The notes beneath the pieces are model-generated. The model saw only the letters and a program-made list of their open reading frames with translations. It did not search any database and was not told the origin of the DNA. Made by a program: the position numbers and the translations under genes. Of a DNA stretch of 64,000 nt, positions 38,096 through 51,808 are shown piece by piece. The stretch's first letter is position 1; each line of letters starts with the position of its first letter. This stretch comes from Nostoc sp. HK-01 (GTDB taxonomy: Bacteria; Cyanobacteriota; Cyanobacteriia; Cyanobacteriales; Nostocaceae): NCBI GenBank assembly GCA_003990705.1, contig AP018318.1:3227501-3291500 (forward strand), written 5' to 3'.

Positions 38096-40393
38096 ATGGA
38101 ATTAAACTTACAACTTCCGAGCATCAATGTTACTAGCTTAAAAGAAGCTCCGATTCATACATCTCGGCAAATTCAGCCGCACGGAGTATTGCTAGTTTTG
38201 TCAGAACCAGAATTAGAAATATTACAAATTAGTAATAATACTTGGACTGTTTTCGGGATAGAACCCGAACAGATGTTGCAAAAAAAACTAGAAGATTTAC
38301 TCGACTCGTTTCAACTCGAAAGAATTAAAGCAGGGTTAGCAGAAGATAATCTGGAATTTATCAACCCAACAAAACTTTGGTTCAGAAAAAAAGGTGATGA
38401 ATACGTTGTTTTCGACGCAGTTTTTCACCGCAATTCAGAAGGGAATTTAATCTTAGAACTAGAACCGACATTTTCTCAAGAAAATATCCCATTTTTAAGC
38501 TTTTACCATCTAGCAAAAGCTTCTATTAACCAGTTAGAAAAAACCTCAACACTGCGGGACTTTTGTCAGATAATTGTCCAAGAAGTACGGAAGGTAACTG
38601 GTTTTGATCGGGTAATGCTATACAAATTTGATCATGATGGACATGGTTCAGTTATTGCCGAAGAAAAGCTAGAAATCTTAGAACCATATTTAGGCTTACA
38701 TTATCCTGAGTCAGATATTCCCAAACCCGCCAGAAAATTATTTGCCTCTAATTCTATTAGAATTATCCCAGATGCTCAGGCAGCACCAGTTCAACTGATT
38801 CCGGCAATCAATCCAGTTAGTCAGCGTTCATCAGATTTAACTAACTCAATTCTCCGCAGTCCGGCTGCTTGTCATCTTGAGTACTTGCACAATATGGGTG
38901 TGGGCGCTTCTTTAACTATCTCTTTAATTAAAGACAACAAACTTTGGGGATTGATTGCTTGTCATCACCAAACACCTAAATTTGTTTCTTACGAATTGCG
39001 GAAAGCCTGCGAATTTTTAGGCAGAGTGATATTTGCAGAAATTTCCGCCAGAGAAGAAACAGAAGATTACGACTATCGCATGAATTTGACACATATTCAA
39101 TCATTGTTGGTTGAATATATGTCCCAAGAAGAAAACTTTATTGATGGTTTAGTCAAACATCAGCCGAATCTTTTAGATTTAACGAGCGCCCAAGGTGCGG
39201 CTGTTTGTTTTGGCGATCGCTGTACATTAATAGGTGAGACTCCCGCAGAAGAAGACCTGAATTTTTTGGTGCAGTGGTTAAAGAATAACGTCGATGAAGA
39301 AGTTTTCTATACAAATTCTTTGCCACAGGTTTATCCAGATGCGGAAAGATTTAAAAATGTTGCTAGTGGTTTGTTAGCGATTCCAATTTCTAAGCGCAAT
39401 TATGTTTTGTGGTTCCGACCAGAAGTAATTCAAACTGTAAATTGGGGTGGTGATCCTAATAGAGCGTTTGAAGTTAGCCAGACAGATGGAGATGTGCGTC
39501 TGTGTCCGCGCAAATCTTTTGAACTATGGAAAGAAACAGTCCGCCTGACATCTTTACCTTGGCAATACGTCGAAATTAAAGCTGCGCTGGAATTGCGAAA
39601 AGCGATTGTCAATATTGTATTGCGCCAAGCCGATGAATTGGCTCAATTAGCGCAGGATTTAGAACGTTCTAACGCTGAATTGAAAAAGTTTGCCTACGTC
39701 GCTTCTCATGACTTGCAAGAACCACTCAATCAAGTGGCGAATTATGTGCAGTTATTGGAGATGCGTTACAACGAAGAACTAGACGAAGATGCCAAAGAGT
39801 TTATTAACTTTGCCGTTCAGGGAGTCAGCTTGATGCAGACATTAATAGATGATGTCCTAGCATACTCCAAAGTAGATACACAGGCGATCGCATTTCAACT
39901 AACTGAAGTCGAAACAGCCTTAGAACGCGCCCTCGGTAACTTACGACAGCGCATTGCCGAAACCAACACTATAATTACCCATGACCCCTTACCCACAGTC
40001 ATGGCTGGTAGTACCCAGCTAATGCAGCTATTTCAGAACTTGATAGCTAACGCCATCAAATTCCGCAGTGACCAACCCCCGCAAATTCATGTAGGAGCCG
40101 AGAGATTAGAAGATGAATGGTTGTTCTGGGTGCGCGATAATGGTATCGGCATTGACCCCAGATTTAGCGATCGCATTTTTGTCATCTTTCAACGCCTACA
40201 TACACGAGACGAGTATGCTGGTACAGGCATGGGTCTAGCTATCTGTAAAAAGATTGCCGAATGCCATCGTGGTCGGATCTGGGTAGAATCACAACTTGGA
40301 GAGGGAGCCACCTTCTACTTTACAATTCCAGTTGGAGGGCGCGAGCGTGAGCGTAGAAATGGAAGAAAAGCTCAAAACAATCTTTTTGGTTGA
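38096..40393 (+). CDS. Cph1-type phytochrome histidine kinase
   Basis: 765 residues: PAS (about 20-130), GAF (about 145-310), PHY (about 330-510), HisKA and HATPase. The chromophore cysteine is Cys259 in A-A-C-H-L-E-Y-L, the same position as in Synechocystis Cph1. D-I-P-K-P-A-R and L-R-S-P are the usual bilin-pocket segments. The kinase histidine is His538 (S-H-D-L-Q-E-P), also as in Cph1. It should therefore bind phycocyanobilin and act as a red/far-red photoreversible kinase. Its last bases overlap the response regulator gene, a typical cph1-rcp1 operon. Equivalent to the cphA/aphA genes of other Nostocales. Confidence 0.95.
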
Positions 40394-40793
40394 AGATAAT
40401 AAAGCCGATGTGCGCTTAATCCAAGAAGCATTGAAAAATAGCTCAGTGCCGCACCAAGTAGTGACGGTGAGAGATGGCGTAGATGCTATGGCATTCCTAC
40501 GCCAAGAAGGAGAGTATGCCGATGCTCCCCGTCCTGACCTGATTCTGCTAGATTTGAACTTACCTAGAAAAGATGGTCGGGAAGTATTGGCAGAAATCAA
40601 AAACGACCCCCTACTCAAACGTATCCCCGTAGTTGTGCTGACAACCTCAAAAAATGAGGATGATATCTTTCACAGCTACGACCTCCATGTAAACTGCTAC
40701 ATCACCAAATCTCGTAACCTCAGCCAACTATTCCAAATCGTCAAAGGCATCGAAGACTTTTGGCTATCTACCGTTACCTTACCGTCAGAGTAA
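40347..40793 (+). CDS. rcpA: Phytochrome response regulator (Rcp1-like)
   Basis: 148 residues from the GTG at 40347, chosen because GGAGGG lies 7 bases upstream; the ATG at 40359 is the alternative. Single receiver domain: F-L-V-E-D-N, phospho-acceptor Asp69 in L-L-D-L-N-L-P, L-T-T-S, and the Rcp-specific C-terminal strings [11 protein letters not shown] and G-I-E-D-F-W-L. It has no output domain, like Rcp1, and accepts the phosphate from the phytochrome. It overlaps the kinase gene by 47 bases. Confidence 0.93.
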
Positions 40794-40796
40794 GTT

Positions 40797-40895
40797 AAAA
40801 GGCAAAAGTAAAAAGTAAAAAAGAAGAAATCAGAATTAAAATTCAAGATTTCCTTTATCTTTCTTTTACCTTTTGCCTTTTACCTTTTGCCTTTT
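40797..40895 (+). terminator. Long A-rich/T-rich inverted repeat after rcpA
   Basis: AAAAGGCAAAAGTAAAAAG at 40797 onward is mirrored by TTTTACCTTTTGCCTTTT units at 40864-40895. The arms are heptamer repeats of the same type as after argF and lexA. It ends just before the hybrid kinase start and could separate it from the phytochrome operon. Confidence 0.5.
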
Positions 40896-40923
40896 CACTT
40901 CCCAGGATCGAAACCAGAAAACT

Positions 40924-42084
40924 ATGGCTGGAAGCTTAGTAAAAATCTTGTTAATTGAAGACAATCTGGCAGAAGCTAGGTTATTGCAAGAGTTTTTGCA
41001 GCAAGCCGATGCGAAAGAATTTGTGCTAGTTCATGTCAAGCGATTGCAAGAAGGACTCAATCAACTCAGAACCAACAATTACGACATCATTTTATTAGAC
41101 CTCACTCTACCCGACAGTCAAGGATTATCATCTCTGCCAGTGCTGATTAGTTGTGCGCCGAGCTTGCCAATTGTCGTACTCACCAATACTAACGACGAAG
41201 AACTGGCAGTGGAAGCAGTTAGAGAAGGAGCGCAAGATTATTTAGTCAAGCGTCAAGTCAATGCTAATGGCTTGGTTCGCTCTATATGTTATGCGATCGA
41301 GCGTAAACAGCTATTAGAAACATTACGTCAAGTTAATCAGACATTACAAGTGCGGGTTGACGAGCGCACCGCCGAACTAGTGAAAGCGAATGAAATCAAC
41401 CAGTTCCGATCAGAATTTGTTTCGATGCTTTCTCATGATATTCGTCAACCGCTAAATACCATTCTCTTAGCCGCTGGATTACTCCAAAATAACGAAGATA
41501 AATTAACTCAAGAGAAAAAGCGGAATCATTTACAGATGATTCGTACAGCTATCAAGAATATGGCACAAATGTTAGATGAAGTGTCGTTAATTGGTAGGGC
41601 TGATTCCGGCAAATTTCAATGTGACCTTGAGCCATTAGATTTAGAAATATTTTGCCGTCAACTAGTAGAAGAAGCACAATTATCTCTTAAAGATAAGAAT
41701 TTAACTCTAGTTTTTGCAAGTTATGGAGGAGTTGGTGAAGCCGTCTTGGATGAAACATTACTGCGCCACATTTTAGGTAATTTACTAGGCAATGCGATTA
41801 AATATTCATTACCTAATGGAAAAATTCAATTTGAATTAATTGGCCAAGAAAATTCCGTGATGTTTCGCTTTCAAGATTGGGGGATTGGCATTCCTAAACA
41901 AGACCAAAAGCGGATGTTTCAGCCTTTTCAACGTGCAGAAAATGTCGGCAGAATTCCTGGTACTGGCTTAGGCTTGGCAATTGTCAAAAAGTGTGTAGAT
42001 GCACATGGTGGCGAGATTATGGTGAATAGCGAAGTTGGCGTTGGTACTACATTTATCGTTACGTTACCTTTAATCAAGCTTTAA
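40924..42084 (+). CDS. Receiver-histidine kinase next to the phytochrome operon
   Basis: 386 residues from the ATG at 40924; the frame is open to 40873 through repeat DNA. N-terminal receiver (L-L-I-E-D-N, Asp59 in L-L-D-L-T-L-P, L-V-K-R in place of the usual K-P), a coiled coil, HisKA (His171 in S-H-D-I-R-Q-P) and HATPase (N-A-I-K-Y, D-W-G-I-G-I, G-T-G-L-G-L). Cytoplasmic. Its position suggests that it takes part in the same light-signalling chain as the phytochrome. Confidence 0.9.
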   Translation: MAGSLVKILLIEDNLAEARLLQEFLQQADAKEFVLVHVKRLQEGLNQLRTNNYDIILLDLTLPDSQGLSSLPVLISCAPSLPIVVLTNTNDEELAVEAVREGAQDYLVKRQVNANGLVRSICYAIERKQLLETLRQVNQTLQVRVDERTAELVKANEINQFRSEFVSMLSHDIRQPLNTILLAAGLLQNNEDKLTQEKKRNHLQMIRTAIKNMAQMLDEVSLIGRADSGKFQCDLEPLDLEIFCRQLVEEAQLSLKDKNLTLVFASYGGVGEAVLDETLLRHILGNLLGNAIKYSLPNGKIQFELIGQENSVMFRFQDWGIGIPKQDQKRMFQPFQRAENVGRIPGTGLGLAIVKKCVDAHGGEIMVNSEVGVGTTFIVTLPLIKL

Positions 42085-42419: not shown

Positions 42420-42611
42420 GCTACAAGACACATCCAATTTAAAAAATACCTCATCATTTCGATTTAAACCCACAGAAAGTGCGCTATTTTTGTCCCGATT
42501 CATACTTGCTATTCTCTTGCATTCAAAAATCAAAGAAAGCATGATGTTAATGGGAAGAGACAAATCACAGTTTGCTTCTCAAAAACAACTTGAATCTAGA
42601 GGTTTATTATC

Positions 42612-42776
42612 ATGGCTGAAATTAAAATTACTCAACTAAACTCTGAAAAAACTGCTGATGAAATCATTGACTTAAAGGCTAAATCTGCCAAAGATTCACT
42701 CGAATTTACAGCTTTCACAACTGTACGTGGTGGAGTTGCTTTTGCAGTTGCTAAATGGTCTTCTTTCTTAGCTTAA
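42612..42776 (+). CDS. Putative double-glycine leader peptide (RiPP/bacteriocin-like precursor)
   Basis: 54 codons, ATG preceded by TAGAGG 9 bases upstream. The leader (1-41, beginning M-A-E-I-K-I-T-Q-L-N, Lys/Glu/Asp-rich and helical) ends in V-R-G-G. Counting back from the GG, the hydrophobic positions -4 (Val), -7 (Phe) and -12 (Leu) fit the pattern recognised by C39 peptidases. The predicted core is the last 13 residues, V-A-F-A-V-A-K-W-S-S-F-L-A, with no Cys, so no lanthionine or disulfide is possible. A C39-ABC exporter is encoded 3.6 kb downstream on the same strand. Two strong hairpins follow directly, as is usual for precursor genes that need high expression. The precursor role is inferred; the frame and motif are seen. 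Confidence 0.6.
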   Translation: MAEIKITQLNSEKTADEIIDLKAKSAKDSLEFTAFTTVRGGVAFAVAKWSSFLA

Positions 42777-42786
42777 GATAGTTTTT

Positions 42787-42840
42787 TTAAAATAGTTCTG
42801 AAATACACAATATTTATTGCTGCTTTCAGAACTATTTTAA
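42787..42840 (+). terminator. 17-bp hairpin after the precursor gene
   Basis: TTAAAATAGTTCTGAAA (42787-42803) is perfectly complementary to TTTCAGAACTATTTTAA (42824-42840) with a 20-base loop. It starts 10 bases after the precursor stop, next to a run of seven T, so it could act as a terminator for the opposite strand too, or as an attenuator and mRNA stabiliser. Confidence 0.65.
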
Positions 42841-42850
42841 AATGAATTTC

Positions 42851-42890
42851 CACAGTGACATAGTTAATTATATAAACTAACGTCACTGTG
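42851..42890 (+). terminator. Second hairpin in the precursor-TPR gap
   Basis: CACAGTGAC (42851-42859) and GTCACTGTG (42882-42890), perfect 9-bp arms followed by ATTTATCT. With the previous hairpin it makes a tandem barrier between precursor and downstream genes. Confidence 0.55.
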
Positions 42891-42980
42891 ATTTATCTCA
42901 TATCTAGCTAATTCTCATCATCGCTTTATTTAGTTAGGACTGTATTAACTGCTTAGGGATAAAAATCAGGAGATAATTTT

Positions 42981-44309
42981 ATGGCAACTCTTAATAGTTC
43001 ACCAATAGCTTGGTTAAATAGACAATATTTTGATCTTGGCCCTTTAAATGGTGGCAAACCACATCATTATGGGATTGAATTTAGTTATAATAGTTTAATA
43101 AATAACAAGACACTTCCCTATACTGTACAAGTAAATATTTCTCCTTTTTTTAGAGAATCTCTGGTAAAAGAAACTGGGATGTTTCAATACCATATTGATC
43201 ATCCACTACAACTAGCAAAAGAATTACGTACCGAGCGTTGGGAAAAATTTTGTGAGTATTTAGCAAATTATCAAGAATTGCCAAATCTCACTAAACTACG
43301 TGTGATGAATTTGTTGAGAAGCTTGTGCTTTCATCGGGTAGTGAAAGAGTATATCCCAGAGATATCTAGTGCAGAAATTGCCAGTGATGTAGAACTGGCT
43401 ACTCTCGCATGGTGTAGAGCGCTTTCGAGCTTGATTACTCACTTTGACGATCGCACCTTTGATTATATCCAAGAAATTGAAGCGATCGCCACTCATGCGC
43501 CATCAGGAAGTAAGGTAAAAATCAATGCTGGTTTACAAATGGTAGTTGAGTATGCCAAAACATTTGGAGATTTAGCCGCAGCTGAGTTTTGGCGTGAAGT
43601 AGTTACCAAGGACATTCAAGAATTAAAACCTTCACTCAACGATTTTGAATTTAATTTGTTGATGAGTATGTACTATCGTTCTGTTTCTTTTGTGCCATTT
43701 TTACGCAGAGATAAACAGAAGGTAGTTGAAGAAATGGATTTATGCGAATCTCACGCCAGAAGTTTGAATCCTGAAAATGAATTGCAACAAATTGTAGCGC
43801 GGGAAAATCTCAGTCTGTGTATGGAAAGCCGTTCTAAAGAGTCTATCTGGCTCAAAGATCTCGATCTTGCAGAAGAACGAGTACGCCTAATAGTTCAACT
43901 AGAGCCTTTAGAGCCTAGATATCACTTGGAGTTGGCAGAGGTGTTGAGCAAGCAAGGTAAACTGGAAGAAGCTGCCAAAGTTTATCGTTCAGCTACAAGG
44001 TTAGGCCCTCCAGGTACTCCAGTGGCTTGGTTTATGGCTGGTCAATGTCACGAAAAAATTGGTGAATTAGAATTAGCTAGTGATTGTTATCTGGCTTCTC
44101 TGCAAATCGAGCCAGAGGCTATCTCAGTTGTCAAACACCTATCTAATATAGCTCCTCGCTTGGGAAATCCCGGACTCGTAAATTGGAGTAATTTACGTTT
44201 AGCTGAACTCGAAGAACAGCAACAAAAATTACAGCCTAAAGCTGCACCTAAATTCCAAAGTGAATCCCTATCTGCATTAAAGCGATCAGCAGATAAAGTA
44301 TTAGTTTAA
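42981..44309 (+). CDS. TPR protein of the peptide locus, unknown function
   Basis: 442 residues; AGGAGA lies 8 bases before the start. No signal peptide or membrane segment. The N-terminal 250 residues are not recognised (notable: D-L-G-P-L-N-G-G-K-P-H-H-Y-G-I-E near residue 17 and several W/F-rich helices). The C-terminal 150 residues contain tetratricopeptide-like repeats (Y-H-L-E-L-A-E-V-L-S-K-Q-G-K-L-E-E-A and A-W-F-M-A-G-Q-C-H-E-K-I-G-E-L-E). Its position directly after the precursor suggests precursor binding, modification or chaperoning, but no catalytic motif is visible. Confidence 0.6.
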   Translation: MATLNSSPIAWLNRQYFDLGPLNGGKPHHYGIEFSYNSLINNKTLPYTVQVNISPFFRESLVKETGMFQYHIDHPLQLAKELRTERWEKFCEYLANYQELPNLTKLRVMNLLRSLCFHRVVKEYIPEISSAEIASDVELATLAWCRALSSLITHFDDRTFDYIQEIEAIATHAPSGSKVKINAGLQMVVEYAKTFGDLAAAEFWREVVTKDIQELKPSLNDFEFNLLMSMYYRSVSFVPFLRRDKQKVVEEMDLCESHARSLNPENELQQIVARENLSLCMESRSKESIWLKDLDLAEERVRLIVQLEPLEPRYHLELAEVLSKQGKLEEAAKVYRSATRLGPPGTPVAWFMAGQCHEKIGELELASDCYLASLQIEPEAISVVKHLSNIAPRLGNPGLVNWSNLRLAELEEQQQKLQPKAAPKFQSESLSALKRSADKVLV

Positions 44310-44450: not shown

Positions 44451-45221
44451 ATGACAAACCCGATTGTAATTACCAACCAAGATATTCTGCATCAACTGAA
44501 ACTATCTTGTAAGCTGCCAGAAATCATTGAACAAATCACTGCCGATCATATTGTTAAAGCTGCTGCTGTGGAAAATGGGATTAAGGTAGAAACAGAAGAG
44601 TTGCAACAAGCAGCAGATAAAATCCGGTTAGCTAATAATCTTGATAGTGCGGCACAAACATGGCAATGGCTGGAAACAAACCATTTATCCCTCGATGATT
44701 TTGAACAAATTACACATAGCAGTCTCATTTTTGGCAAGTTAGCAGCACATCTCTTTGAAAATAAAGTTGAAGAATACTTTTTTGCACATCAACTAGACTA
44801 CGCTGGTGTAATCATGTATGAAGTTATTTTAGAAGATGAAGATTTAGCATTAGAACTTTTTTACGCTATTAAAGAAGGTGAAATTAGCTTTTATGAAGTT
44901 GCTCACCAATACATCGAAAATATAGAATTACGTCGCGCTTGCGGATATCGTGGGTTAGTGCGTCGCCGAGATTTATTACCAGAACTATCTGCGGCTATTT
45001 TTACTGTTCAGCCATCCCAACTTCTCAAACCAATTTTTACATCAAGAGGAATTCACTTGATTTTGGTGGAGGAAATTATTCAGCCGGAGTTAGATGCTCA
45101 ACTGCGCCAACAAATTGTGGCATATTTATTTGCGGAATGGCTGAAACAGCAAACTCAACAAGTTACACATCAGCTTCAGTTTGACTCAAATCAACAAATT
45201 AACTCTTTATACTCAGTTTAA
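44451..45221 (+). CDS. SurA/parvulin-type peptidyl-prolyl isomerase
   Basis: 256 residues without a signal peptide. An N-terminal helical chaperone part (about 1-115, SurA-N-like) is followed by a rotamase segment (about 120-215: F-Y-E-V-A-H-Q-Y, then R-A-C-G-Y-R-G, L-P-E-L-S-A-A-I-F, and S-R-G-I-H-L-I-L-V-E) typical of PpiC/parvulin. Cyanobacterial copies of this cytosolic type are often encoded beside C39-ABC/HlyD export genes, as here, suggesting they keep the exported peptide or exporter competent. The next gene is separated by a strong terminator. Confidence 0.82.
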   Translation: MTNPIVITNQDILHQLKLSCKLPEIIEQITADHIVKAAAVENGIKVETEELQQAADKIRLANNLDSAAQTWQWLETNHLSLDDFEQITHSSLIFGKLAAHLFENKVEEYFFAHQLDYAGVIMYEVILEDEDLALELFYAIKEGEISFYEVAHQYIENIELRRACGYRGLVRRRDLLPELSAAIFTVQPSQLLKPIFTSRGIHLILVEEIIQPELDAQLRQQIVAYLFAEWLKQQTQQVTHQLQFDSNQQINSLYSV

Positions 45222-45722: not shown

Positions 45723-46352
45723 ATGTCGTACCAACAAGCACAACATGACATCCCAAGGGCGCAAGCACCTACAGGTAAGTATTTAACAAAGTTTCAGCGC
45801 AAACTGCTGCAAGAAAATTTGCAAAAAGATTTATCTGATTCCTATCGTCAGCGAATTGAAATTATGTTGTTGGCGGATGAAGGAAAGTCACAAACAGAAA
45901 TTTGTCAGATTTTGGGCTGTTGTGCTGCTACAGCACGCCATTGGATACACATTGCGCGAATGGGAATGGCGCATCAATGGCAAGATTTCCCAATTGGTCG
46001 CCCAAAAGCGGTGAATGAGCAATATTTAGAGCGATTGAAAGAACTTGTCAGTAATAGCCCCCGTGACTATGGCTATTCTTTTCGGCGATGGACAGCAAAT
46101 TGGCTACAAAAACATTTAGCAAAAGAATTAGGTGTGGAAATTAGCGATCGCCATATTAAACGACTCCTGAAACAAATGGGGTTGTCTACATTACCAAAAT
46201 CCCAAAATGCTGAAGTAAGCAATACTCAGCCAACGAATGAGTCCAAAATTTTGATTAAAGATTTGCGATCGGCAAGATTAACCGATGATAGCGATTTCTT
46301 GTCGATGAAATTTACAAAATTAGGCAGAAATGTAGATACTTATGGCGCATAA
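45723..46352 (+). CDS. HTH protein derived from an IS630-type transposase N-terminus
   Basis: 209 residues. Residues about 25-85 are a homeodomain-like HTH (R-I-E-I-M-L-L-A-D-E-G-K-S-Q-T-E-I-C-Q-I), and about 100-160 a winged helix of the kind found in IS630/Tc1-type transposases (R-R-W-T-A-N-W-L-Q-K-H-L, then S-D-R-H-I-K-R-L-L-K-Q). The DDE catalytic domain is absent, and the C-terminal 45 residues are unlike any transposase. It overlaps the exporter start by 11 bases, so it is translationally coupled. It may be a domesticated DNA-binding regulator of the locus. Confidence 0.72.
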   Translation: MSYQQAQHDIPRAQAPTGKYLTKFQRKLLQENLQKDLSDSYRQRIEIMLLADEGKSQTEICQILGCCAATARHWIHIARMGMAHQWQDFPIGRPKAVNEQYLERLKELVSNSPRDYGYSFRRWTANWLQKHLAKELGVEISDRHIKRLLKQMGLSTLPKSQNAEVSNTQPTNESKILIKDLRSARLTDDSDFLSMKFTKLGRNVDTYGA

Positions 46353-49059
46353 TCTATCTGTTCAGTTGGTCACTCTAGAACAACTCAACGCAAGTTTGGG
46401 CTGTTCCCTCTCGCTAGAAGAATTTCAGTCCTGTCTGCAACAAGCAAAATCCCTTAATCCTAAAGTTGGTAAATTCTGGCAAGGCATAAATGTTGAATCT
46501 GGCATCTATATTGTCGTGACAGGCAAAGTCAGATTACTAGATGAAGCCGATGAATTAATTGCCACGTTAGAAGCAGGAACTTCCTTTGGAGAATTTACTT
46601 TATTTCCAGAAGCTAACTTTAAACCATATTCAGCCAGGGCTTCAGTTAATTTACAACTGTGCTTTATTCCCAGTGATGTATTACATTCATTAATGGCCAA
46701 ATATCCCGAAATTCGCGGTCATCTTTGGACTAAAGCCTTATCCCGTTCGCCACAACAGACAGACTCAGATGATTTTCCCCTCACAACATCACATCATCAA
46801 ATAGACATTGTTGCGCCACCTGTCGAACTTGCAGACAACAAAAAGATTAGCAAAGCTTACTTCCCCAACCCTACCCAGCGAGTCGGCCATTTATGGCAAA
46901 AAGTCACTCGGCGCTATCCATTTTTTGCTCAACAAAGTGCTTCTGACTGTGGTGCAGCTTGTTTAGTGATGGTGTCTCGCTATTGGGGTAAACGCTTTAG
47001 TGTGAATCGCTTGCGAGATATTGCTAATGTAGACCGCAACGGTGCATCTTTGCGCGGTTTAGTGATGGCAGCGGAAAGCCTCGGCTTTAATACTAGACCT
47101 GTCAAAGCTAGTTTCAACCAGTTAACCAAGCAAAAATTACCAGCGATCGCTCATTGGGAAGGCAAGCATTATATAGTTGTTTATGAAATCACCCCAAAAG
47201 ATGTGATTATTGGCGACCCCGCCATTGGTCAAAAAACCCTCAGCCACAGCGAATTTAAAAGTAACTGGACTGGTTATGCTTTGCTGTTGCAACCAACAGC
47301 CGCCCTCAAAGATGCCAAAGAAACCTCTACACCTTTTTGGCAATTCTTGAGATTAATGCAACCCCACTCGTTGGTAATACTGGAGGTGTTAATTGCTTCA
47401 GTCTTTATCCAGATATTTGGACTGATTACCCCTTTATTTACCCAGTTAATTTTAGACCGAGTGGTTGTCCAGCGATCGGAACTCACATTAACAGCCGTGG
47501 GTTTAGGATTGTTGATGTTTAACTTGTTTCGCGTCGCCATGATAGGGTTACGCCAATATCTGTTAGATCACACAGCTAACAAAATCGACTTAGTTTTAAT
47601 TGTGGGTTTTATTCGCCACACCTTCCGGCTACCTTTGAGTTTTTTCGAGTCGCGTTATGTGGGAGATATCATCTCGCGCATCCAAGAAAATCGCAAAATT
47701 CAAAGATTTCTATCCGGTGAAGCCTTATCTATCCTGTTAGATTTATTCACCGTCTTTATTTATGTAGGATTAATGCTGTGGTACAGCTGGCAAATGGCAC
47801 TACTAGTATTAGTTATAGTCCCACCTTTTGCCTTATTAGCATTGATAGCTACACCTTTTCTCCAAAGGATTTCACGAGAAATATTTAATGCTGTTGCCAA
47901 AGAGAGCAGTTACTTAATTGAAGCCCTAACTGGTGTACGAACAGTCAAAGCTACAGCAGTTGAACAAAATGTGCGCTGGCATTGGGAAGAGTTATTAAAT
48001 CAAGAAGTCAAAACCAACTTCGCCAGCCAAGTTATTAGTAACCGTCTGCAAATCATTAGTAACACAATTCAAGCTTTAGTAACTACTGCCTTGTTATGGT
48101 TTGGGGCGCATTTAGTCATCCAGAATCAGTTAACAATTGGTCAATTAGTAGCATTTAATTTGCTATTAGTCAATATTATTACCCCCTTTCAAAGATTGAC
48201 AGTTTTGTGGAATCAATTACAAGAAGTAGTAATTGCTGTAGAAAGGATTAATGATGTTTTAGATGCAGAACCGGAAGAAGATTTACAATATCAGCTAAGG
48301 CAAAACTTGCCGCAAATTCAAGGTAGTATTCGCTTTGAAAATGTGACTTTTCGCTATCACCCAGACAGTGATGTAAATATTTTAGAAAATCTCAGTTTTG
48401 CAATCAAACCAGGACAAATGGTAGCTTTAGTGGGGCGTAGTGGTTCCGGGAAAACAACCATTTCTAAGTTAGTTTTAGGATTGTATCCGCCTACTGATGG
48501 CAAAATCTGGATTGATGGTCACGATATTACCAGTATTTCCTTACGTTCTCTACGTTCTTGTGTGGGAGTAGTTGACCAAGATACCTTTTTATTTGGTGGC
48601 ACAATTCGAGAAAATATTAGTTTGGGTTATCCTGGGGCAACTTTAGCAGAATTGATAGAAGCTGCCAAGTTAGCTGGTGCTGATGAGTTTATTAAAAAGT
48701 TACCTTTGGGATATGAAACTCAAATAGGTGAAGGTGGCGGTTTGTTGTCTGGTGGACAGCGACAGCGAATTGCGATCGCTAGGGCTTTATTAGGTAATCC
48801 GCAGTTATTGATTTTAGATGAAGCTACTTCTCATTTAGATACTGAATCTGAAAGAATTATTCAACAAAATCTCACCAAAATTCTCAATGGAAGAACAACA
48901 TTAGTCATAGCCCACCGACTTTCGACTGTGCGGAATGCAGATTTGATTTTAGTTCTAGACAGAGGGTTGCTAATTGAAAGTGGAACTCATGAAGAATTAA
49001 TGAATAAAAAAGGGCATTATTTCTATCTTAATCAACAGCAATTCCAGCTTAATAATTAA
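46342..49059 (+). CDS. Peptidase C39-ABC exporter with N-terminal cNMP-binding domain
   Basis: 905 residues. A cyclic-nucleotide-binding-like beta-barrel (about 35-130: G-I-Y-I-V-V-T-G-K-V-R, G-E-F-T-L-F-P) precedes a C39 peptidase with the triad Cys203 (S-D-C-G-A-A-C), His276 (K-H-Y-I-V-V-Y) and Asp292 (G-D-P). Six membrane helices (about 335-620) and the ATPase follow: Walker A G-R-S-G-S-G-K-T (698-705), L-S-G-G-Q (802-806), L-I-L-D-E-A-T-S. Such PCAT proteins cut double-glycine leaders and export the core. HetC of Anabaena has, as far as I recall, a comparable layout. All catalytic residues are intact. Confidence 0.93.
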   Translation: MAHNLSVQLVTLEQLNASLGCSLSLEEFQSCLQQAKSLNPKVGKFWQGINVESGIYIVVTGKVRLLDEADELIATLEAGTSFGEFTLFPEANFKPYSARASVNLQLCFIPSDVLHSLMAKYPEIRGHLWTKALSRSPQQTDSDDFPLTTSHHQIDIVAPPVELADNKKISKAYFPNPTQRVGHLWQKVTRRYPFFAQQSASDCGAACLVMVSRYWGKRFSVNRLRDIANVDRNGASLRGLVMAAESLGFNTRPVKASFNQLTKQKLPAIAHWEGKHYIVVYEITPKDVIIGDPAIGQKTLSHSEFKSNWTGYALLLQPTAALKDAKETSTPFWQFLRLMQPHSLVILEVLIASVFIQIFGLITPLFTQLILDRVVVQRSELTLTAVGLGLLMFNLFRVAMIGLRQYLLDHTANKIDLVLIVGFIRHTFRLPLSFFESRYVGDIISRIQENRKIQRFLSGEALSILLDLFTVFIYVGLMLWYSWQMALLVLVIVPPFALLALIATPFLQRISREIFNAVAKESSYLIEALTGVRTVKATAVEQNVRWHWEELLNQEVKTNFASQVISNRLQIISNTIQALVTTALLWFGAHLVIQNQLTIGQLVAFNLLLVNIITPFQRLTVLWNQLQEVVIAVERINDVLDAEPEEDLQYQLRQNLPQIQGSIRFENVTFRYHPDSDVNILENLSFAIKPGQMVALVGRSGSGKTTISKLVLGLYPPTDGKIWIDGHDITSISLRSLRSCVGVVDQDTFLFGGTIRENISLGYPGATLAELIEAAKLAGADEFIKKLPLGYETQIGEGGGLLSGGQRQRIAIARALLGNPQLLILDEATSHLDTESERIIQQNLTKILNGRTTLVIAHRLSTVRNADLILVLDRGLLIESGTHEELMNKKGHYFYLNQQQFQLNN

Positions 49060-49414
49060 TTATCAATAGTCGTTTGATTGTCTTTACTCTTCATTTTTAG
49101 CCCCTAACTACTGTTTTGATAAAAAATATGACAGATACATTTAATGGTAAACGACCAAATTCATCTTTAAAAGAAAAAGATACATTTGAACAAGCAATTA
49201 TAAACAACTCTATACCAGCAAAAACTGATGATTGGTCTGATGTTACGAGAGAAACACTGGATAACTTACCCGAAGTGTGGACGAGAGGAATACTATATTT
49301 TTTAGTTGTGTTTGTCTCAATCATTTTACCTTGGACAATATTTTCTCAGATTGATGAAACAGGTACAGCTAGAGGCAGAATTGATACCAAGTTGCAGTCA
49401 GATGTAGTAGTCTA

Positions 49415-50531
49415 AAAAAAGAGATGACGAGAACAAAGGCAGAGTCTGACGGGTGCATATGGCTCAAGTAACGCAAGCAGTACCCCATCTAGATTTAGAG
49501 ACGGTAAAACAAAGAGTAAAGTTGGCGCAATCGCATTGGGAAAGGCAAAAATGGCTAGTGATATACAATGCGAGCGCAGATCCAAGAACAGCAGCCGAGA
49601 TAGCTGTACACGTAGGGGTATCAAAAGGGTTTGTCAGAAAAGTAATTCAACAATACAACCGCAAGGGAGAAGCTGGATTATCAGCGTCAGGGAAAGGCGG
49701 TAGACATAATTGCTATCTAAGCTGGGAGCAAGAAAAAGAACTGATAGATTCTTTTAAAGAAAAGGCACGCAGTGGTCAAGTGGCAACAGCAATGCAAATA
49801 AAACTTGCGTATGAAAAGAAATGTGGTTTTACTGTGCATAAAACTACAATTTATCGCCTATTAGAACGGCATCAGTGGCGCAAAATTATCCCAAGACCAA
49901 CTCATCCCAAAAAAGACCCAAATTCTGTTGATGAATTTAAAAAAACTTTCCTCAACTAGTAGAAAAAATTAATCAAACAAGAGACCCATCTGATACTAGA
50001 CCTGTAGTATTAATGGCAGGAGATGAAGGCAGGTTTGGTCGGATTGGAGAAGTTAGGGCTTGTTGGTGTCCCCAAGGTATACGCCCAACTGTGCCAAAAC
50101 AACAAGTCAGGCAGTATATTTATGCTTACGCCGCAGTTGCACCCGAATTAGGCAAAATGACTTGCTTAACTTTGCCTTATGCTAATACTAAAATGATGAA
50201 TTTATTTTTATCACAAATTTCCCAAGAATTTGCTGATTATTTTGTAATTTTACAGTTAGATAAAGCATCTTGGCATCGTTCTAATGCTTTAAATGTTCCT
50301 GAAAATATTCGTTTAATTTTTCAACCTGCTCATAGCCCAGAATTAATGCCGGTTGAACACATCTGGGAAGACATTCGAGAAAAACACTTTTATAATCAAG
50401 TCTTTCCTACTTTAGACCACGTTGAGGACGTACTATGCCAGGGTTTAATCGACCTTTGTTCTGATAGCGATCGCCTGCGTTCTTTAACTTTTTTTCCTCA
50501 TCTCAGAATACTACCTCTGAACGCAACTTAG
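49415..50531 (+). mobile_element. IS630-family insertion sequence
   Basis: About 1117 bp inserted in the hlyD-like gene. TA at 49413-49414 and 50532-50533 is the likely duplicated target: it is the only TA pair that restores the adaptor reading frame without a stop, and IS630 elements duplicate TA. I could not see convincing terminal inverted repeats at these limits, so the ends are uncertain by some bases. Confidence 0.75.
49453..50531 (+). CDS. IS630-family transposase, two frames joined by -1 frameshift
   Basis: The first frame (49453-49959, 168 residues) holds the HTH and winged-helix DNA-binding part. The second, -1 frame has its conserved part from about 49941 and contains the DDE domain: Asp in M-A-G-D-E-G-R-F, Asp in L-Q-L-D-K-A-S-W, Glu in V-E-H-I-W-E-D-I. 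A run of seven A (49939-49945) sits just before the first frame's stop and is a classic slippery site; a -1 slip there yields D-E-F-K-K-N-F-P-Q-L-V-E-K-I. All catalytic residues are present, so the element may be active. Confidence 0.82.
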
Positions 50532-51808
50532 TATGAAACTCAAGATAAAACCATTAAGCTCGATGCGGCTGTGGCGGGTACGGTAGCTGAAATTCAAGTA
50601 AAAGAAGGAGATTCAGTCAAAGCCGGACAAACTTTATTAATATTAGACTCGGAATTGGTGAAATCTGAATTGCAACAAGCCCAGGATAAATTAGAAGGGC
50701 AGTTAAATCGATTGACGCAGTTAAATTCAGCGAAAAATCAACTATTTGTCTCTTCGGCAACCCAAGAGCAACAAAATCAATCTCAACAGTTAGAGAAGCA
50801 ATCACAAATTGAGCAATTTCGCCAAAATCTGCAATTAATTACTAATAATTTTAATTTACATAAAGAGGAAGGTATAGCACAATTAAACCAAGCAAAGCAA
50901 ACTATTATACAACATGAAAAAGCGAAAAAATTAGCAGAAGTTAGCTTGGCGATCGCTCAACGAGAACTAGAGCGTTATCAAAAGGCTTTCCAAGATGGAA
51001 TTGCGGCTGAAGTTAACGTTGTAGAAAAAGAAGATGCTCTACAAGAAAGAATAAAATTCCATGAATAAACAAAAGCAGATATTCAACAAGCAAAGTTACG
51101 TTTAGCAGAACAACAAAGCAGTTATGAACGGAATATTCGCCAAGCTAATGCAGATATTCAACAAGCCCAGTTACGCCTCAAAGAGCAAGAAACAAGTTAT
51201 CAAACTTTAATTCGTTCTGGTAAATTAGCCATTTTAAGAATTGCTGAACAACAAAAAAATCTCGAAACTGAGATTACATCTTTGCAATCAGATATCGCTC
51301 AAACTAAAAGTCAAATAGAATCGCTCAAATTTCAATTGCAACAGCGAGAAATCAAAGCTACTACTAACGGTATTCTATTTCAACTACCAATACAAAAACC
51401 AGGAGCCGTTGTCCAATCTGGAACAATGGTGGCGGAGATAGCACCTGCAAATTCACCTTTTATTATTCGTGCCACAATGTCTACTACTGAAAGCGGTTCT
51501 TTACATACAGGATTACCAGTCAAGCTAAAGTTTGATGCCTATCCATTTCAAGATTATGGTGTGATATCAGGAGAGTTAATTAAGATTTCTCCGAATACTA
51601 CAGAAATAGACACCCCTAATGGCAAAGTTGCGGCTTATAACTTAGATATTGCGCTCAAACAAAACTGTTTGCCCTCTGCTGATAAATGTATACCCTTGCG
51701 CCCAGGTGATACAGCTACCGCCGAAGTCATCATCCGCCAACGGCGAATTATTGATTTTCTACTTGATCCATTTAAGCAGTTACAGCAAGGAGGGGTGAAG
51801 TTGTAAGA

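What the first reader, a model, noticed from the sequence alone, without database searches (positions are those of the whole stretch)
42612..42776. Unannotated 54-codon gene with double-glycine leader: candidate peptide signal or bacteriocin
The peptide ends in V-R-G-G followed by a 13-residue core (V-A-F-A-V-A-K-W-S-S-F-L-A). Hydrophobic residues at -4, -7 and -12 relative to the GG match C39 recognition. It is short, has its own ribosome site, is followed by strong hairpins and shares its strand with a C39-ABC exporter. The core lacks Cys and has one Lys and one Trp, unlike lanthipeptides or microcins, so it may be a linear signal peptide or a product with an unknown modification. Frame and motif are seen; function is inferred.
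Basis: partly seen in the sequence, partly recalled or inferred. Interest (0 to 1): 0.8.

Follow-up and report, generated by a model that had tools for sequence, protein, structure and literature searches.

The report
Cyanobacterial secreted-peptide precursor with TPR partner
A cyanobacterium carries a real, easily overlooked tiny gene for a short, probably secreted peptide that sits beside one particular partner protein of unknown role; related bacteria keep the front half and the partner but change the peptide itself, nearly always keeping one tryptophan.

Summary
The 54-codon frame is real and coding. Five of 11 same-genus genomes (window included) have it; the other four are 89-96% identical, and the 13-residue core is the same in four of the five. 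Homologues at 40-53% identity share leader and Gly-Gly. The main finding lies next door: all 24 genomes found with the downstream TPR gene (42981-44309) have a double-glycine peptide just upstream, and in 217 family genomes the 13 convincing type-1 peptides all sit beside it. Leaders are conserved and cores vary, yet 21 of 24 distinct cores hold a Trp, mostly after Lys or Cys (about 4 expected); two of three exceptions end in an interspersed repeat. C39-ABC and HlyD genes are near in 22 of 24 loci; no tailoring-enzyme gene recurs. Best reading: a new double-glycine precursor family whose TPR partner handles the precursor before C39 cleavage and export. What the TPR protein does is not shown. 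Two genomes have the peptide without it. The window's own hlyD is broken. No curated family matches; nine paper searches found no description.

The parts
42598..42602 (+). ribosome-binding site AGAGG
   Evidence: sequence; GAGG kept in the four relatives aligned
42612..42734 (+). leader, 41 codons ending in Arg-Gly-Gly
   Evidence: leader conserved in 21 aligned sequences
42735..42773 (+). 13-residue core VAFAVAKWSSFLA (stop 42774-42776)
   Evidence: identical in 4 of 5 same-genus genomes (window included), one change in the fifth
42785..42842 (+). hairpin 1 between peptide and TPR gene (arms 42785-42803 and 42824-42842)
42851..42890 (+). hairpin 2 (arms 42851-42859 and 42882-42890)
42981..44309 (+). 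442-aa TPR protein, constant genomic partner of the peptide
44451..45221 (+). PpiC/SurA-type rotamase; weak match to TIGR04500 'putative peptide maturation system protein', below its cut-off; homologue in 16 of 24 loci
45723..46352 (+). HTH protein with homeodomain-like, IS630-type N-terminal domains; homologue in 12 of 24 loci
46342..49059 (+). ABC exporter with N-terminal cyclic-nucleotide-binding domain, C39 peptidase, membrane domain and ATPase
49122..49391 (+). hlyD, N-terminal part (about 90 residues) before the insertion
49392..50533 (+). IS630-like insertion in hlyD, bounds approximate (transposase-like frames 49453-49959 and 50013-50531)
   Evidence: the second frame named from its sequence only
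50534..51806 (+). hlyD, remaining part, with an in-frame stop

Best explanation
The frame is the precursor gene of a small secreted peptide. The 41-residue leader ending in Gly-Gly directs the precursor to a C39 peptidase-ABC exporter, which cleaves after Gly-Gly and exports the 13-residue core through a HlyD-type conduit (inferred from family knowledge and gene linkage). The adjacent 442-aa TPR protein is a dedicated partner (gene pairing shown), most likely an alpha-solenoid that binds the precursor, chiefly its leader, to keep, present or tailor it before export (inferred). The two hairpins between the genes probably stop most transcripts or protect the short message, giving more peptide than TPR protein (inferred). 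Across the family the core is free to change except for one Trp, usually after Lys or Cys, which suggests that Trp is a recognition or modification point. Activity, antimicrobial or signalling, is undetermined. In the window's strain export would need an unlinked HlyD.
For: Coding. Pairing: 16 of 217 family genomes have the TPR gene and all 16 have a GG peptide upstream on the same strand, within about 0.5 kb; 8 further genomes in a sample of 388 of the order, again 8 of 8. In the family 13 of 13 convincing type-1 peptides lie by the TPR gene. Export link: in all 5 genomes with the second leader type, peptide, TPR, C39-ABC and HlyD follow in that order on one strand. Comparing all frames of 100 aa or more among the 24 loci, the recurring genes were TPR 24, C39-ABC 22, HlyD 22, PpiC 16, HTH 12, then histidine kinases 7 and one unnamed family 3. 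The TPR protein tracks the leader: one branch (93/91) separates TPR proteins of the two leader types, while the cores of four related Microcystis-like genomes differ (0-75% identity) with TPR proteins 85-94% identical. Leader identity 0.56 versus core 0.24 (shuffled 0.19) over 91 pairs of 14 precursors. Trp in 21 of 24 distinct cores.
Against: Two Microcystis-like genomes carry a type-1 peptide without the TPR gene (G473 with export genes; G323 with neither in its 12.2-kb contig), so the TPR protein is not strictly needed for the gene to persist; both cores lack Trp. One locus has no exporter within about 10 kb (L036), and in G137 and G128 the C39-ABC reads in two pieces. TPR homologues on two Streptomyces plasmids (29% identity) exist; in the one whose frames were listed no GG peptide lies upstream. 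hlyD is broken in the window and reads in two frames in G001. The structure model is poor (mean pLDDT 56). No binding, processing or activity was tested.
Confidence: 0.6

Rival explanations
1. Cell-cell signal: the exported core is taken up again and bound by the TPR protein, which acts as an intracellular receptor, as in RRNPP quorum sensing but with a double-glycine precursor.
For: Adjacent small propeptide and 442-aa TPR protein meet three of the five published RRNPP criteria, with TPR presence a fourth in part; core nearly constant within the window's genus.
Against: TPR proteins 85-94% identical pair with mostly different cores in four Microcystis-like genomes, unlike a specific receptor; the TPR protein tracks leader type; no DNA-binding or other output domain found; no Sec-type signal by eye.
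Confidence: 0.15
2. The TPR protein is itself a new kind of tailoring enzyme, or brings one, that modifies the near-constant core Trp (neighbouring Lys or Cys may take part).
For: Trp in 21 of 24 cores beside the TPR gene, after Lys in 10 and Cys in 7 of 23 Trp; 2 of 3 exceptions end in an interspersed repeat; both TPR-less cores lack Trp; apart from export, rotamase, HTH and kinase genes almost nothing recurs among the 24 loci.
Against: TPR folds are usually binding scaffolds (recalled); no catalytic family matches; only two TPR-less loci; an unlinked enzyme cannot be excluded.
Confidence: 0.2
3. The TPR gene is the immunity gene of a bacteriocin, encoded directly downstream as is common for class II bacteriocins (recalled).
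For: Position and constant pairing.
Against: Cores change more than the TPR protein does; large repeat protein, no membrane domain matched.
Confidence: 0.07
4. Not secreted: a small intracellular peptide or toxin-like product with its regulator, its Gly-Gly being incidental.
For: Exporter can be on the other strand or not found nearby; window hlyD broken.
Against: Gly-Gly invariant in 21 aligned sequences; second leader type has a classic GG leader with TPR and C39-ABC genes directly downstream; no PADLOC match for peptide or TPR protein.
Confidence: 0.05

Closest known systems
Double-glycine precursors exported by C39 peptidase-ABC transporters (class II bacteriocins, microcins, GG pheromones)
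   Same: Short precursor, leader ending in Gly-Gly, hydrophobic -4 and -7, linked C39-ABC and HlyD genes
   Different: No match to a known precursor family; constant TPR partner; Trp-centred, otherwise variable core
Cyanobacterial bacteriocin clusters of groups I and II of Wang et al. 2011 (PMC3140520, parts 1-3 of 5 read)
   Same: Long C39-ABC with an N-terminal CAP_ED domain, HlyD and SurA/PpiC-type rotamase
   Different: The word 'tetratricopeptide' does not occur in its text; its precursor lists are in supplements that could not be opened, so some of these peptides may be among its 150 'Other' precursors
HetC of Nostoc PCC 7120 (PMC10986499, passages read)
   Same: C39-ABC exporter with N-terminal cyclic-nucleotide-binding domain
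   Different: The paper reports no GG-leader gene near hetC; this system has one
RRNPP peptide-receptor pairs (PMC10075063, abstract and passages read)
   Same: Small peptide gene next to a 250-500 aa TPR protein
   Different: Double-glycine leader rather than Sec or PptAB export; no output domain found; TPR protein follows the leader type
CTB family bacteriocin NF038167 (cyan_ocin_like)
   Same: Cyanobacterial GG precursor (as the model is named)
   Different: Not among the matches of 21 type-1 peptides; one of five type-2 peptides gave 13.4 bits, cut-off 32

Membership tests
Double-glycine / C39-exported precursor | short leader ending in GG (or GA/GS) | tested here: met
   GG invariant in 21 aligned sequences
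Double-glycine / C39-exported precursor | hydrophobic residues at -4, -7 and -12 | tested here: inconclusive
   -4 and -7 hold in 20 of 21 (not G517); -12 is Leu here but Pro in the four closest relatives
Double-glycine / C39-exported precursor | linked C39-ABC exporter | tested here: met
   22 of 24 loci; L036 has none in 20 kb, the L061 contig (3.2 kb) is too short; in G137 and G128 the gene reads in pieces
Double-glycine / C39-exported precursor | cleavage after GG and export of the core | not testable with these tools
   needs biochemistry
RRNPP pair | small propeptide (10-100 aa) | tested here: met
   54 aa
RRNPP pair | propeptide secreted by Sec (or PptAB) | not tested
   no signal-peptide predictor; charged leader without hydrophobic stretch by eye
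RRNPP pair | receptor of about 250-500 aa | tested here: met
   442 aa
RRNPP pair | receptor TPRs that bind the mature peptide | tested here: inconclusive
   TPR repeats present; binding not testable
RRNPP pair | receptor and propeptide genes are direct neighbours | tested here: met
   24 of 24 TPR loci
NHLP, Nif11-type (N11P), CTB and other named precursor families | match to a curated NCBIfam or Pfam model | tested here: not met
   window peptide 0 families in NCBIfam (E up to 1) and Pfam (E up to 0.1); 21 type-1 peptides gave only three single, weak NCBIfam matches (best E 0.033)
Lanthipeptide | LanM or LanB/C genes and Ser/Thr/Cys core | tested here: not met
   none among the seven window frames scanned; core has two Ser but no Cys or Thr

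The most novel reading that the evidence does not exclude
A new class of ribosomal peptide in which a TPR protein is the sole dedicated maturation factor and acts on a fixed Trp (beside Lys or Cys) in an otherwise freely varying core, or reads that Trp as the anchor of a Gram-negative peptide-receptor system.
Probability: 0.3. Interest if true: 0.82.

Novelty: new variant of a known kind. Interest (0 to 1): 0.58.

Why it matters
It defines a small, sharply bounded two-gene module (double-glycine precursor plus one TPR protein) spread patchily over Nostoc-like, Microcystis-like and other genomes of one cyanobacterial order, for which no curated family and, in nine searches of open papers, no description was found. 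It gives a C39 exporter of the HetC-like domain type a concrete candidate substrate, and the conserved-leader, variable-core, near-constant-Trp pattern makes testable predictions about peptide tailoring or recognition by a TPR protein.

Tried and rejected
Non-coding frame: rejected. Lanthipeptide: no enzyme gene among the seven frames scanned, no Cys or Thr in this core. Transposase remnant for 45723-46352: unlikely, a homologue recurs in 12 of 24 loci, upstream of the exporter. Hairpins as a repeated mobile element: found at one place in the genome; no Rfam match at gathering score. Local hypermutation of cores: the two tandem copies in G457 differ, over about 1350 bp, only at four sites, all in the core, which looked like targeted diversification; but the core end lies in an interspersed repeat with at least 28 further copies in that genome (about 90% identical over 77-86 bp in the four compared), by eye probably a transposase-gene end, so the claim was dropped. 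The clustering of the four differences remains unexplained; no diversity-generating template was shown. TPR fold: model weak; the fold search gives generic TPR proteins with low TM-scores. Viral contigs: none of 33 pattern matches confirmed. Phylum sample (386 genomes): no TPR gene beyond genomes already found. Most of the 71 family genomes listed at E up to 1 are noise; only hits below 1e-5 were taken as homologues. The weak hits G174 and G172 were fetched too and had no TPR gene. Weak hit G037, inside an 803-aa frame, was not counted. Tree row G454_t1 had a shortened N-terminus.

Full report
What was checked. The frame at 42612-42776 reads as described: a 41-residue leader ending in Arg-Gly-Gly, then VAFAVAKWSSFLA, with AGAGG nine bases before the ATG. 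No NCBIfam or Pfam model matches it, and no close second copy exists in its genome; the only other hit is 33% identity at E = 1.52.

It is a gene. Five of 11 same-genus genomes, the window's included, carry it; the other four are 89-96% identical. Over ten pairs of these five sequences the ratio of non-synonymous to synonymous change lies between 0.10 and 0.76 (median 0.26, nine of ten at or below 0.40), from few changes each; the core is identical in four sequences and has one substitution in the fifth. A profile search of 217 family genomes found six more members in other genera at E below 1e-5; five of them, aligned, are 44-51% identical. In the later 21-sequence alignment the distant members are 40-53% identical, and Met1, Lys5, Ile6, Ala34, Phe35, Gly40 and Gly41 are invariant.

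The partner. In all six distant members the next gene encodes a homologue of the window's 442-aa TPR protein, whatever the position or strand of the exporter; two weak hits fetched with them (G174, G172) had none. Searching for its N-terminal 290 residues, outside most of the repeats, gave 16 of 217 family genomes, 14 of 388 in a sample of the order (six of these already seen) and, among 386 in a sample of the phylum, nine, none new (the samples overlap): 24 distinct genomes. All 24 have a double-glycine peptide upstream on the same strand, within about 0.5 kb. In 19 the leader is of the window's type (type 1); in five (G008, G207, G043, G297, G512) it is a classic GG leader (...ELSFEAMETISGG, type 2), and there TPR, C39-ABC and HlyD genes follow in order. 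Conversely, a profile of 21 type-1 peptides found, in the same 217 genomes, 13 convincing carriers, all TPR-positive (a fourteenth, weak hit in an 803-aa frame is not counted). In the order sample two carriers, G473 and G323, lack the TPR gene. A Fisher test on the family counts gives 2e-18 for type 1 alone, but related genomes are not independent.

What else recurs. All frames of 100 aa or more in the 24 loci (mostly 20 kb; five are shorter) were compared with each other. Families seen in at least three of 15 lineages (near-copies pooled by me) were: TPR in 24 genomes, C39-ABC 22, HlyD 22, PpiC 16, the HTH protein 12, histidine kinases 7, and one unnamed family 3. No tailoring-enzyme family recurs, so if the peptide is modified by a linked gene product, the TPR protein is the first candidate. 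An unlinked enzyme is not excluded.

Leader, core and Trp. Over 91 pairs of 14 type-1 precursors the mean identity is 0.56 for leaders and 0.24 for cores, against 0.19 for shuffled cores. Of 24 distinct cores beside TPR genes 21 contain Trp, where about 3.8 would be expected at a background of 1.4% (my assumed value); the residue before Trp is Lys in 10 and Cys in 7 of 23. The 24 include one core behind a partial leader without its own start (CCWCYYMQM, G436) and three pairs of near-copies, so the sample is smaller than it looks. Of the three cores without Trp, two are tandem copies in G457 whose core end lies in an interspersed repeat with at least 28 further copies in that genome, by eye probably the end of a transposase gene; the third is ATLHKSSLL of G043. 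The two TPR-less peptides have cores FTGMRIAPNTKSLSL and AQRFRAPELLF, without Trp; two cases are few. Counting them too, Trp is in 21 of 26.

Who recognises what. A tree of the 24 TPR proteins plus a Streptomyces homologue separates those with type-1 from those with type-2 leaders on one branch, support 93/91, recovered in 90% of bootstrap trees. Together with changing cores beside less changed TPR proteins, this points to leader recognition rather than to a receptor or immunity protein specific for the core. It is inference. The model of the window's TPR protein (four sequences, mean pLDDT 56) shows helices from about residue 85 to 416 and resembles generic TPR structures only.

Export genes. 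The cluster has a PpiC/SurA-type rotamase, an HTH protein and a C39-ABC exporter with an N-terminal cyclic-nucleotide-binding domain, the make-up of groups I/II of Wang et al. (PMC3140520, parts 1-3 of 5 read). L036 has no exporter in 20 kb, L061 is a 3.2-kb contig, and in G137 and G128 the C39-ABC reads in pieces. In the window hlyD is split by an IS630-like insertion and has an in-frame stop, while L007-L009 have long intact hlyD frames; in G001 it reads in two frames. Two other intact hlyD homologues (50% and 47% identity) exist in the genome.

Hairpins. The stretch 42774-42905 folds at -39.5 kcal/mol against -15.3 for shuffles (z -7.9). Over five sequences, window included, arms of hairpin 2 are fully and those of hairpin 1 largely kept while loops vary. 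A terminator scan and Rfam found nothing. A role in message stability or partial termination is inference.

Literature. Searches (open PubMed Central only, listings seen) showed no paper on a TPR protein paired with double-glycine peptides. Wang et al. list 150 'Other' precursors in supplements that could not be opened. RRNPP criteria come from passages of PMC10075063; HetC facts from passages of PMC10986499.

Verdict. Confirmed gene; a new double-glycine precursor family with a constant TPR partner; activity unknown.

Noticed in passing
49122-51806: hlyD of the cluster is interrupted by an IS630-like element and has an in-frame stop; intact homologues exist elsewhere in the genome and in relatives.
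   Followed up: yes
45723-46352: A protein with IS630-type N-terminal HTH domains, which looks like a transposase remnant, recurs in 12 of 24 loci upstream of the C39-ABC gene and is perhaps a regulator of the cluster.
   Followed up: partly
L082:11974-13269 and L083:11974-13269: Streptomyces linear plasmids encode a 29%-identical homologue of the TPR protein; in L082 no GG peptide was seen upstream. Near it lie HTH, BTAD and other TPR genes.
   Followed up: partly
L079:6773-9386: Three tandem precursor genes, 1229 bp apart, with different cores; two cores end in an interspersed repeat, and those two copies differ over about 1350 bp only at four core sites.
   Followed up: partly
L068, minus strand, about 2530-2815: Directly after the precursor lies a second partial leader with another core (CCWCYYMQM): possibly core turnover by partial duplication.
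   Followed up: partly
L101 and L102: Two Microcystis-like genomes keep a type-1 peptide without the TPR gene; the G473 leader is 83% identical to the window's, hinting at transfer between genera.
   Followed up: partly
L041:16982-18515: In G001, another genome of the window's genus, hlyD reads in two overlapping frames.
   Followed up: no
38096-42084: Directly upstream lie a 765-aa phytochrome-like histidine kinase, a response regulator and a receiver-kinase hybrid (named from their sequence, no family search run on them); any link to the peptide was not studied.
   Followed up: no
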